A DNA stretch of 7,746 bases from Deltaproteobacteria bacterium. GTDB taxonomy: Bacteria; Desulfobacterota; GWC2-55-46; S146-70. The stretch is taken from contig WGFD01000091.1 in NCBI GenBank assembly GCA_015492395.1, positions 1 through 7,746 on the forward strand, read 5' to 3'. Below the pieces are notes generated by a model that was given only the letters and a program-made list of their open reading frames with translations, was not told the DNA's origin and made no database searches. A program made the position numbers and the translations under genes. Shown piece after piece: positions 5,188 through 7,746 of the stretch. How positions within the stretch are numbered: the first letter of the stretch is position 1; every line of letters starts with the position of its first letter.

Positions 5188-5598
5188 TTATCGTGACTGT
5201 TCATACATGGTTTTGGTGCGTGGCTTTAAGTCCTGGAGAGGCATTACCTGGTAGTTTTGGTTGTTGATCATTACGATGTTGTCACGCAACTCTTCGAAAT
5301 CCACCTTGTCGAAGAAGAGCTTGAGCGCGGGGTGGAGTACCTCCGTGGTCTGCGGATGGACCCTTATCAGGATAAGACCGAGGAAAAGGGCCCGTTTGGT
5401 CTGGAAGAAGAGCGGGGCGTGTACGTCGTATGTCATGAGAAAAAGGTTCTCTCTCTTGGCGAGGGAGTATACCGCCTCATCGGTGCGCTCAACAATCGCC
5501 TCCCCCACCTCGATCACATCCAGGCCAAGCTCCCTTAAGAAGGCGGTCGTCTTCGGAGAGATGTTTTGATCGATAAGAAATCTGAAGTCACTCATCAT
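5188..5598 (-). CDS. DUF5615 family PIN-like protein (putative RNase toxin)
   Basis: A 136-residue protein with the DUF5615 signature of small PIN-like nucleases that pair with DUF433 proteins. FLIDQNISPKTTAFLRELGLDV (7-28) carries the first acidic residue Asp10. VGEAIVERTDEAVYSLAKRE (31-50) gives the middle acidic positions (Glu33, Asp40/Glu41). NLFLMTYDVHAP (51-62) supplies Asp58, where relatives usually read 'LLTxDxDF'. So the acidic triad expected for Mg-dependent RNA cleavage looks intact. Residues 72-81 (FLGLILIRVH) form the next core strand. The tail from about 110 (INNQNYQVMPLQDLK, then basic) is slightly long for the family. Two ATGs are adjacent; GAGGAG lies about 5 bases ahead of the first, and the start lies inside the end of the DUF433 gene (11-bp overlap). 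Toxicity is inferred from the family and arrangement, not shown; some DUF5615 proteins may not be toxins. Confidence 0.8.
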   Translation of the reverse strand: MMSDFRFLIDQNISPKTTAFLRELGLDVIEVGEAIVERTDEAVYSLAKRENLFLMTYDVHAPLFFQTKRALFLGLILIRVHPQTTEVLHPALKLFFDKVDFEELRDNIVMINNQNYQVMPLQDLKPRTKTMYEQSR

Positions 5599-5806
5599 CA
5601 GGCTCCTCTTCGGGGATAAGGTGTTTGGTCTGTTCCAGTATCGCCCTGATGTCGTCCACCTTTAAAGAGGGATAATAATCGGCTATTTGCTCCTCCGAGT
5701 AACCGCCCACCTTCAGGCTGAGGATATTCGCCACCATGATCCTGGTACCCTTTACGGAGGGTTTCCCATGGCATACACTCGGGTTCGATGCTATAAGATC
5801 TGTCAT
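5588..5806 (-). CDS. DUF433 family HTH protein (putative antitoxin)
   Basis: A 72-residue protein of the DUF433 family, small winged/HTH-like antitoxins typically placed just upstream of DUF5615 PIN-like toxins, as here. Conserved elements: IASNPSVCHGKPSVKGTRIMV (5-25), NILSLKVGGYSEEQIADYYPSL (27-48) containing the helix-turn-helix, and KVDDIRAILEQT (49-60), followed by an acidic tail EEEPDDE. An upstream GTG at 5855-5857, overlapping the fabI stop as GTGA, would add 17 residues. I chose the internal ATG because GGAGGC sits 3 bases before it and because family members begin a few residues before the 'NP..CHGKP' block. The spacing to fabI is then 47 bases. It probably neutralises the following gene product and may repress the pair. 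No separate promoter is evident, so it may be read from the fabI transcript. Confidence 0.82.
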   Translation of the reverse strand: MTDLIASNPSVCHGKPSVKGTRIMVANILSLKVGGYSEEQIADYYPSLKVDDIRAILEQTKHLIPEEEPDDE

Positions 5807-5853
5807 ATCGCCTCCACGGCCGACTCCATACGGCTTCAATACACTCTTGCCTG

Positions 5854-6624
5854 TCACATGCCTATTATATTATATCCGGCGTCTACGTAGATCGTCTCTC
5901 CCGTTACGCCGCTGGAGAGGTCGCTCAGCAGGTAGAGGGCAGTTTTTGCCACTTCTTCCGCGGTGATGTTGCGCTTCAAGGGCGACCGATCCTGAATGTG
6001 GCCTAGGATCTCCTTGAACCCTGAAATACCCATGGCCGCGAGTGTCTTGATGGGCCCAGCGGATACGGCGTTCACGTTTATACCCTTCGGACCCAGGTCG
6101 GCCGCCAGGTACTTTACACTGGCCTCCAGGCCCGCCTTCGCCACACCCATGACATTATAGTTGGGTATCACCTTTCTGCCCCCGAGATAGGTCATCGTGA
6201 TGATCTTACCTCCGTTTGACTCCATGAGAGGGTACGCCCCCCTGGCCATGGCGATCAGGGAGTAGGCACTGACGTCCATCGCTAGCGCGAAGCCCTGCCG
6301 TGTAGTGTCGACGAATGCCCCCTTGAGCTCGTCTTTGTTTGCGAAGGCGATGGAGTGCACAAGGATGTCGAGCGCCCCCCACTCTTCCCGGATCTTGCCA
6401 AATAGGGAGTCGATATCTTCATCCCTGGTTACGTCGCAGGGTATTAAGAGTCCGGCACCGATACTTCCGGCCAAGATCCTTACCCGTTCTTCGAGCCTCT
6501 CTCCCGCATACGAAAAGGCGAGCTCGGCGCCTTCCTTATGGAGTTCCCGGGCGATGGACCATGCTATGCTCTTATTGTTAGCAACGCCGAGTATCAGCCC
6601 TTTCTTACCTTCCAGTAAACCCAT
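5854..6624 (-). CDS. fabI: Enoyl-[acyl-carrier-protein] reductase, FabI type
   Basis: A 256-residue short-chain dehydrogenase fold enzyme that reduces trans-2-enoyl-ACP with NAD(P)H, the last step of each type II fatty-acid elongation cycle, in the cytoplasm. Seen: the FabI-specific nucleotide loop [13 protein letters not shown] (13-25) in place of the ordinary GxxxGx[11 protein letters not shown] (63-72), [13 protein letters not shown] (90-102), and TMTYLGG with Tyr146. The catalytic pair is Tyr156 and Lys163 (YNVMGVAK), followed by [17 protein letters not shown] (181-197) and [15 protein letters not shown] [11 protein letters not shown] (240-250). Tyr146, Tyr156 and Lys163 fall at exactly the E. 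coli FabI numbers. Position 93 is Ala where E. coli has Gly, as in many Gram-positive FabI proteins. Length is normal. AGAGG lies only 2 bases before the ATG, an unusually tight ribosome site, but the [10 protein letters not shown] start matches the family. First gene of the minus-strand block. Confidence 0.95.
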
Positions 6625-7524: not shown

Positions 7525-7551
7525 GGCAGAGGGATAGGTATGTTCTCTGCC
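7525..7551 (+). promoter_or_regulatory. 5'-terminal hairpin competing with the riboswitch P1 strand
   Basis: GGCAGAG (7525-7531) and CTCTGCC (7545-7551) form a perfect 7-bp stem around a 13-base loop. From the predicted sigma-54 start it would be the first structure of the RNA. Its 3' arm covers the bases that lead into the GEMM aptamer and would pair with GGGC at 7620-7623 in P1, so it could act as an anti-P1 stem. This is inference from base pairing only. Confidence 0.4.
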
Positions 7552-7630
7552 CAGAGCAAACCAGTGGAAACATTGGGACGCAGAGCAGCGGGACTAAAGG
7601 AAATGGACTTCCGGGTCGCGGGCCGGCTAT
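7545..7630 (+). promoter_or_regulatory. GEMM-I (cyclic-di-GMP-I class) riboswitch aptamer, possible cGAMP-type variant
   Basis: The conserved core is unmistakable: AGCAAACC (7555-7562), then a helix CCAGTG (7561-7566) / CATTGG (7571-7576) closed by a GAAA tetraloop (7567-7570), then GGGACGCAGAGC (7575-7586). A second arm at about 7588-7619 contains the receptor-like CTAAA, an inner stem GGAA/TTCC (7599-7602/7609-7612) and an outer GAC/GTC with GCG/CGC. It ends in GCGGG (7618-7622), as in Vibrio Vc2. P1 can form from GCCC (7549-7552) and GGGC (7620-7623). Aligned to Vc2 (CAGGGCAAACC), this aptamer reads CAGAGCAAACC, placing A at the ligand-contacting position G20. A20 marks the GEMM-Ib group that prefers 3',3'-cGAMP in Geobacter. 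The class call is firm; ligand preference depends on that alignment. It lies between a sigma-54 promoter and the gene at 7743. Confidence 0.9.
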
Positions 7631-7668
7631 GAACTGTGAATCCGGAATGGAGATTTCCCAAGTCGGCC
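7621..7668 (+). promoter_or_regulatory. Alternative stem in the riboswitch expression platform
   Basis: GGCCGGCT (7621-7628) can pair with AGTCGGCC (7661-7668) over 8 bp with a single G-U. It uses three of the four bases that close P1 (7620-7623), so it cannot coexist with that P1 pairing. In addition CCGGGTCGC occurs twice, at 7611-7619 (3' strand of the second arm and junction) and 7667-7675 (just before the terminator), giving a second possible strand exchange. Confidence 0.4.
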
Positions 7669-7673
7669 GGGTC

Positions 7674-7710
7674 GCCAGAGAGGGTTGTTCTTTGGCAGTT
7701 TCATTTTTTT
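7674..7710 (+). terminator. Candidate riboswitch-controlled intrinsic terminator
   Basis: GCCAGAGA (7674-7681) pairs with TCTTTGGC (7689-7696), 8 bp with one G-U, around a 7-base loop. AGTTTCA and then seven T (7704-7710) follow. The T-run begins 7 bases after the stem, which is looser than ideal. It stands between aptamer and start codon, where a transcription-terminating platform is expected. CAGAGA in its 5' arm can also pair with TCTCTG at 7544-7549, in the P1 5' strand. Confidence 0.5.
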
Positions 7711-7742
7711 GTTATTCGAGATCAACAGACAAGGAGGTCATT

Positions 7743-7746
7743 ATGG
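7743..7746 (+). CDS. Start of a gene cut by the window edge, controlled by the riboswitch
   Basis: AAGGAGGT (7731-7738), a perfect anti-16S match, lies 4 bases before ATG at 7743. Only the start codon and one further base are in the window, so the product is unknown. In Geobacter-type bacteria GEMM-I riboswitches often precede c-type cytochrome, pilus or other extracellular-electron-transfer genes. That is context knowledge, not evidence from this sequence. Confidence 0.7.

What the first reader, a model, noticed from the sequence alone, without database searches (positions are those of the whole stretch)
7545..7630. GEMM-I riboswitch carrying A at the ligand-specificity position (possible cGAMP sensor)
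The core, GAAA-capped helix and GGGACGCAGAGC junction identify a cyclic-di-GMP-I class aptamer. Where Vc2 has CAGGGC this one has CAGAGC, which by my alignment replaces G20 by A. Published work on Geobacter GEMM-I RNAs links A20 to recognition of 3',3'-cGAMP instead of c-di-GMP. If correct, the host has a Hypr-type GGDEF signalling branch.
Basis: partly seen in the sequence, partly recalled or inferred. Interest (0 to 1): 0.8.

Follow-up and report, generated by a model that had tools for sequence, protein, structure and literature searches.

The report
Likely cGAMP riboswitch beyond Geobacter
This stretch encodes a known kind of bacterial RNA switch with two bases changed in its signal-binding pocket, changes that likely retune it from cyclic di-GMP to cyclic GMP-AMP, and closely similar switches lie in genomes labelled Nitrospirota, Gemmatimonadota and Geobacteraceae.

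Summary
RF01051 (c-di-GMP-I) matches 7545-7679 at 51.4 bits, and the column of Vc2 G20 is A, at 7555. A second A20/G48 copy lies elsewhere in the genome. Of 50 aptamers read in the class, 27 are A20/G48; a pattern scan of GTDB genomes gave 42 more such loci. Class relatives carry two conserved GGDEF families with the published Hypr marks: Ser in 80 of 80 read, GGDE[F/Y], no Arg at the cross-dimer site. Against: none of the host's 13 GGDEF hits shows Ser (10 Asp, 1 Asn, 2 unread); one genus has G20 in orthologous switches; Ser enzymes are common in the class with or without the switch. A cGAMP-preferring ON switch is the best reading (0.6). Ligand, host enzyme and controlled gene are unproven. 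New variant of a known kind.

The parts
7545..7680 (+). GEMM-I (c-di-GMP-I) aptamer with A20 and G48 and a long P3
   Evidence: RF01051 match 7545-7679, 51.4 bits; P1 closing base 7680 from the sequence
7545..7549 (+). P1 5' strand CUCUG
   Evidence: pairs with CAGAG 7676-7680; over 73 sequences of this type (the window among them) 344 of 365 P1 cells pair, with U-A, C-G and G-C alternatives; 1000 column shuffles mean 303, max 314, relatedness not kept
7555..7555 (+). A20: predicted contact of the alpha base of the ligand; G in the c-di-GMP type
   Evidence: alignment, column 11; letters
7561..7576 (+). P2 hairpin with GAAA tetraloop (7567-7570)
7583..7583 (+). G48: pocket base, A in the RF01051 consensus
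   Evidence: alignment; letters
7675..7675 (+). C92: predicted reader of the beta guanine of the ligand
   Evidence: sequence; named as a key base in PMC3764141 (passages)
7676..7680 (+). P1 3' strand CAGAG, shared with the terminator
7674..7696 (+). intrinsic terminator hairpin that reuses the P1 3' strand, followed by AGUUUCAUUUUUUUG
   Evidence: terminator scan; fold of 7672-7712 -12.7 kcal/mol, z -3.7, 0 of 200 shuffles as good
7732..7737 (+). Shine-Dalgarno-like AGGAGG of the controlled gene
   Evidence: sequence
7743..7745 (+). predicted ATG of the controlled gene; the contig ends at 7746, so the gene is unknown
   Evidence: contig length 7746; sequence

Best explanation
Window 7545-7680 carries a GEMM-I aptamer with A20 and G48 in its ligand pocket, and it likely works as a cGAMP-preferring ON switch in which bound ligand would hold helix P1 closed and so keep the overlapping terminator (7674-7696) from forming. 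Shown: the aptamer match, both pocket bases, covariation of P1, the overlap of P1 and terminator, and a second A20/G48 copy in the same genome with the same layout. Inferred: that A20 selects an adenine at the alpha position while C92 reads guanine at the beta position (by analogy with Geobacter); that G48 is a co-adaptation; that the unseen downstream gene encodes a surface or secreted protein as in many relatives; and that cGAMP is made by a Hypr-type GGDEF of the kind conserved in the class, which was not detected in this assembly.
For: A20 in the RF01051 alignment. A published A20G change turns cGAMP into c-di-GMP selectivity (PMC6456294 passages). Of 50 class aptamers read, 27 are A20/G48, and outside one genus every G48 aptamer read has A20 (related sequences, so not independent). 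Terminator sharing the aptamer 3' strand: 22 of 27 class A20/G48, 4 of 5 class G20/G48, 32 of 38 pattern-found loci, 1 of 2 same-phylum A20/G48, against 2 of 13 class and 3 of 17 same-phylum G20/A48 and 0 of 2 class A20/A48; letter-shuffled downstream means 1.0, 0.1, 1.4, 0.0, 0.4, 1.0 and 0.0. Class enzymes: Ser at the specificity site, GGDE[F/Y] and a non-Arg cross-dimer residue in 50 of 50 GAF-GGDEF and 30 of 30 receiver-GGDEF orthologues read; in 77 of the 80 that residue is Ser, Ala or Gln, which in tested Ser enzymes goes with mostly cGAMP, and Ser enzymes with GGEEF are said to be non-functional (PMC6456294 sections 13, 14). Best homologue is Ser-type in 12 of 17 named genomes with the switch (4 Asp, 1 unread).
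Against: Own genome: 13 GGDEF hits, 10 Asp, 1 Asn, 2 unread, none read as Ser; no SMODS cGAMP-synthase domain. Five orthologous switches of one genus (g11) have G20 with G48, although three of those genomes (G011, G019, G031) have both Ser enzymes, G046 has both with two in-frame stops in one, and G060 has one plus an unread part of the other. The GAF-GGDEF is found in 52 of 63 class genomes, with or without an A20 switch, so co-occurrence does not discriminate. In the 12 named Ser enzymes only 3 have Tyr, Ser or Gln at the cross-dimer site; the rest have Phe, Leu or Gly. G48 has no biochemistry that I found. No ligand was tested.
Confidence: 0.6

Rival explanations
1. The switch still senses c-di-GMP, or both dinucleotides, because G48 compensates for A20 or because A20 alone only relaxes selectivity.
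For: A natural A variant in Desulfobacca gained cGAMP affinity with perhaps a slight loss for c-di-GMP (PMC9481103 section 38). Genus g11 has G20 in place of A20 in the same switch before the same kind of gene. Own assembly has ten Asp-type GGDEFs and none read as Ser-type.
Against: A20 is kept in 27 of 32 G48 aptamers read in the class, and class relatives hold enzymes with the published marks of cGAMP synthases.
Confidence: 0.28
2. The double change A20/G48 makes a pocket for some other dinucleotide or related signal.
For: Two of the four bases named as key for recognition (G20, C92, A47, A48; PMC3764141 passages) differ; the own genome has one GGDEF with Asn at the specificity site (C81).
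Against: C92 and A47 are kept; published A20 aptamers bind cGAMP.
Confidence: 0.08
3. A decayed or non-functional GEMM-I copy.
For: The gene behind it cannot be seen; the P3 arm is long; the fold of the whole leader is not unusually stable (z -1.1).
Against: P1, the terminator, a second copy in the genome and many relatives keep the same layout.
Confidence: 0.04

Closest known systems
c-di-GMP-I (GEMM-I) riboswitch, RF01051
   Same: fold, GAAA tetraloop, C22-G45 and G21-C46 pairs, A47, C92; above gathering score
   Different: A20 instead of G20, G48 instead of A48
Geobacter cGAMP riboswitches (GEMM-Ib)
   Same: A20; a terminator as expression platform; cytochrome-like or surface-protein genes behind some relatives
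   Different: The eight A20 copies of G086 read here, which I take from memory as the Geobacter type, have C21, G46 and A48; the window type has G21-C46 and G48, with a terminator that reuses the P1 strand
c-di-GMP-I-GGC (RF03167)
   Same: the second own copy scores best with it when the threshold is relaxed (40.8 bits)
   Different: below its gathering score of 59; the window itself matches RF01051
Hypr GGDEF enzymes (GacA)
   Same: class relatives: Ser, GGDE[F/Y], non-Arg cross-dimer residue
   Different: one family is GAF-GGDEF, next to genes that I read as pabB and pabC in G001 and G011; none found in the host assembly

Membership tests
GEMM-I / c-di-GMP-I riboswitch (RF01051) | covariance model match over gathering score | tested here: met
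   51.4 against 35 bits, all 87 positions; the second own copy scores 33.3, below it
GEMM-I / c-di-GMP-I riboswitch (RF01051) | G20 and A48, bases of c-di-GMP-type pockets | tested here: not met
   A at 7555 and G at 7583: a member of the fold family, not of the typical c-di-GMP type
cGAMP riboswitch (GEMM-Ib) | A at position 20 | tested here: met
cGAMP riboswitch (GEMM-Ib) | selective binding of 3',3'-cGAMP | not testable with these tools
   needs in-line probing or ITC
cGAMP riboswitch (GEMM-Ib) | C21-G46 and A48, as in the Geobacter-like copies read here | tested here: not met
   window has G21-C46 and G48; 8 copies of G086 have C21, G46, A48. Not known to be required
cGAMP riboswitch (GEMM-Ib) | genetic ON switch through a terminator | tested here: inconclusive
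   P1 and terminator exclude each other on paper; direction not measured
Hypr GGDEF in the host | Ser at the specificity position of a GGDEF domain | tested here: not met
   0 of 11 readable among 13 hits; assembly 93.4% complete in 359 contigs, so a missing gene is possible
Hypr GGDEF in class relatives | Ser + GGDEF (not GGEEF) + non-Arg cross-dimer residue | tested here: met
   80 of 80 read in two families (one, of G046, with two in-frame stops); activity not tested

The most novel reading that the evidence does not exclude
A20/G48 aptamers with a P1-sharing terminator form a cGAMP riboswitch subclass of their own, with a pocket different from the Geobacter one, used across Nitrospirota (including the manganese lineage Candidatus Manganitrophus), Gemmatimonadota and this unnamed class to turn on secreted fibronectin-type surface proteins and redox genes; one genus (g11) has switched it back to c-di-GMP by a single base.
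Probability: 0.5. Interest if true: 0.75.

Novelty: new variant of a known kind. Interest (0 to 1): 0.58.

Why it matters
cGAMP riboswitch signalling is known chiefly from Geobacter, where it controls contact-dependent metal respiration, and its authors left open whether it is more widespread (PMC6456294 section 14). A coherent A20/G48 subgroup in genomes of other phyla, with predicted synthases in relatives and an A20/G20 difference between neighbouring genera in one orthologous switch, makes that question directly testable with a few RNAs and enzymes. It also questions reading ligand identity from base 20 alone.

Tried and rejected
Looked for the controlled gene: the contig ends one base after its ATG, so it is unknown.

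Looked for a host cGAMP synthase: no GGDEF read as Ser-type, no orthologue of the class GAF-GGDEF or receiver-GGDEF at E 1e-60, no SMODS domain. In G001 and G011 the GAF-GGDEF follows genes that I read as pabB and pabC; in G025 that side is cut by the contig end. In the own genome the only pabB-like hit (C207, 37% identity) lies beside genes that I read as trpG and trpD and is probably trpE; two pabC-like hits (32% and 28%) lie on C269 and C107, contigs without a GGDEF hit. So an assembly gap, loss or another location are all possible.

Co-occurrence of A20 switches with Ser enzymes in the class was considered as evidence and rejected: a Ser enzyme was read in 17 of the 19 class genomes with A20/G48 (not in G000 and G052), but 52 of 63 class genomes searched have the GAF-GGDEF orthologue anyway (G037 and G024 not read). 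The 42 named loci were chosen by a pattern that fixes A20 and G48, so they say where the type occurs, not that the two bases go together.

A first terminator test with stems of 6 or more pairs was too lax (55 of 73 against 23.4 by shuffling) and was replaced by the stricter one. Rows dropped there: L184, L194, L196 (no 3' end found), L057, L018, L203 (too little sequence downstream); two rows with base 48 unread (L050, L069) had no such terminator.

Prior reports: the searches listed no paper that by title or abstract reports A20/G48 aptamers or cGAMP riboswitches in Nitrospirota or Gemmatimonadota; one search showed 25 of 2,693 papers. Three founding PNAS papers (2015, 2015, 2016) are not held and were not read, so earlier mention there cannot be excluded. 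Of the papers used: PMC6456294 outline, passages and sections 13 and 14; PMC9481103 passages and section 38; PMC8835794 part 1 of 6 and passages; PMC6274999 parts 1 and 2 of 7; PMC3764141, PMC7288161, PMC7266159, PMC12342949 and PMC9302825 passages only.

Full report
What is there. The window is a complete 7,746-base contig (C91) of a fragmented genome (2.09 Mb, 359 contigs, 93.4% complete). Its last 200 bases hold one RF01051 match, 7545-7679, 51.4 bits. Lining up the model pairs with published numbering (C22-G45 pair, A47, A48, A49, C92; PMC3764141 passages), the window reads A18 G19 A20 G21 C22 at 7553-7557 and C44 G45 C46 A47 G48 A49 at 7579-7584, with C92 at 7675. A solved cGAMP aptamer contacts its ligand through A14, A41, A42 and C75 among others (PMC7288161 passage); that these are positions 20, 47, 48 and 92 is my renumbering from memory.

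How it probably switches. P1 is CUCUG (7545-7549) with CAGAG (7676-7680). A terminator hairpin at 7674-7696 uses the same CAGAG in its 5' arm (fold -12.7 kcal/mol, 0 of 200 shuffles as stable). The two cannot form together, so a ligand that locks P1 should prevent termination. This matches the Geobacter reporter, in which cGAMP induces expression (PMC6456294 passages), but direction was not measured here. AAGGAGGTCATTATG follows at 7731-7745, and the contig ends at 7746. The fold of the whole leader is not unusually stable (z -1.1).

A second copy. The own genome has one more GEMM-I, on C31 at 313 (33.3 bits, below gathering), also A20/G48, with its terminator directly overlapping the 3' strand (-29.1 kcal/mol), before a 526-aa protein without a Pfam or NCBIfam match and a DUF1501 protein.

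Relatives. Of 117 genomes searched, 54 had a match at E 0.001 or better (strict filters, so some weak ones may be lost). I fetched the loci of all class members listed with a match: 50 aptamers with the two own ones. From the same phylum I read the best locus of 20 of the 24 genomes with a match. Class: 27 A20/G48, 5 G20/G48, 13 G20/A48, 3 A20/A48, 2 with base 48 unread; same phylum: 2 A20/G48, 18 G20/A48 (the cut-off rows L057 and L018 read by eye; for L026 and some C21-G46 rows the first script misread base 48 and the second corrects it). The five G20/G48 copies are all of genus g11 (G011, G019, G031, G046, G060) and sit before the same kind of gene as the A20 copies of neighbouring genera. 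G086, of the same phylum, has eight copies of another A20 type, with C21, G46 and A48, which I recognise from memory as the Geobacter cGAMP type. So A20 occurs in two pocket settings: with C21-G46 it goes with A48 (9 of 9 read), with G21-C46 mostly with G48 (29 of 31 read). These sequences are related and are not independent events.

Beyond the class. A pattern scan of one genome per GTDB species for A20/G48 gave 42 loci, in records labelled Nitrospirae, Nitrospirota or Nitrospiria, Candidatus Manganitrophus (three on the GAC4 chromosome, two in a Manganitrophaceae bin), Gemmatimonadota, Geobacteraceae, Desulfuromonadales, and bins called Proteobacteria or Gammaproteobacteria. The labels are the depositors'; the pattern fixes both bases. 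An Rfam scan of 12 loci that I chose found RF01051 matches in all 12 (17 in all), some in neighbouring pairs. Across 73 sequences (the two own ones among them) 344 of 365 P1 cells pair, against a mean of 303 and a maximum of 314 in 1000 shuffles (shuffles do not keep relatedness). A terminator reusing the aptamer 3' strand is found in 22 of 27, 4 of 5, 32 of 38 and 1 of 2 in the sets with G48, and in 2 of 13, 3 of 17 and 0 of 2 in sets with A48.

Genes behind it. Behind the switches of this type in family f7 the first gene is a secreted protein of about 605 aa, printed in full for six genomes and recognisable by its start in others; the one scanned has fn3 and PKD domains and a CFI-box C-terminus. 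A Manganitrophus copy precedes an fn3 protein. In G017 one switch is followed by a 4Fe-4S/FAD oxidoreductase, an ankyrin protein, an unassigned protein and a protein with CxxCH motifs; SZUA-242 has a similar oxidoreductase. Other relatives have, by eye, short lipoproteins or small unnamed proteins. For several loci no downstream gene could be read.

The signal. In the own genome 13 GGDEF hits give 10 Asp, 1 Asn and 2 unread at the specificity site. In the class, two families carry Ser: a GAF-GGDEF protein (orthologues at 56% identity or more, one of them in fragments, in 52 of 63 class genomes) and a receiver-GGDEF protein (33 of 68 genomes searched). All 50 and all 30 that I read have Ser, a GGDE[F/Y] motif, and Ser, Ala, Gln, Thr or Gly instead of Arg at the cross-dimer site (77 of 80 Ser, Ala or Gln); one of them, of G046, has two in-frame stops. 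Of the Asp-type domains read for comparison, those of relatives have Arg, His or Lys there (37 of 37 read of 39), those of the own genome Arg in 7 of 10 and Tyr, Ala or His in the other 3. Ser, a GGDEF and not GGEEF motif, and Tyr, Ser, Ala or Gln at that site are published marks of GGDEF enzymes that make mostly cGAMP (PMC6456294 sections 13 and 14, read whole). In 17 genomes that I chose from those behind the 42 named loci the best homologue is Ser-type in 12, Asp-type in 4 and unread in 1; of the 12, three have Tyr, Ser or Gln at the cross-dimer site and nine Phe, Leu or Gly. Whether the host has such a gene outside its assembly is open.

What speaks against. No Ser-type enzyme read in the host; G20 in five orthologous switches although those genomes keep Ser enzymes (one with stops, one partly unread); Ser enzymes are common in the class with or without the switch; G48 is uncharacterised in what I could read; and a natural A variant in Desulfobacca is only a partial change of ligand (PMC9481103 section 38). 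I therefore put cGAMP preference at about 0.6.

Verdict. A real GEMM-I riboswitch of a variant type, likely a cGAMP ON switch, and one of many A20/G48 copies in several phyla. New variant of a known kind.

Noticed in passing
own genome C81 (L012, L284): Hybrid kinase-receiver-GGDEF protein with Asn at the GGDEF specificity site and Leu at the cross-dimer site; several orthologues in family f6 also have Asn, with Tyr, His or Asn at the cross-dimer site, while others have Asp.
   Followed up: partly
L052, L058, L063, L071, L089: Five switches of one genus (g11) carry G20 with G48 before the same kind of fibronectin-type gene: a natural single-base difference at the specificity position.
   Followed up: partly
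L083 (G054:C149): Two G20/A48 switches and one A20/G48 switch lie within 4 kb before similar small proteins: possibly two signals on one gene family.
   Followed up: no
L192: Candidatus Manganitrophus GAC4 has two neighbouring pairs of c-di-GMP-I matches within 8 kb.
   Followed up: no
window 5188-5857, minus strand: Adjacent small genes with DUF433 and DUF5615 domains, an arrangement that from memory resembles toxin-antitoxin pairs.
   Followed up: no
L051, L065, L073, L077, L083: Small proteins of about 115-190 aa sharing a motif like 'DPxAxSYYALC' follow switches in families f4 and f12; no family search was run on them.
   Followed up: no
L056, L057 (G018): Two aptamers with A20, G21-C46 but A48, a further A20 combination in the class.
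   Followed up: no
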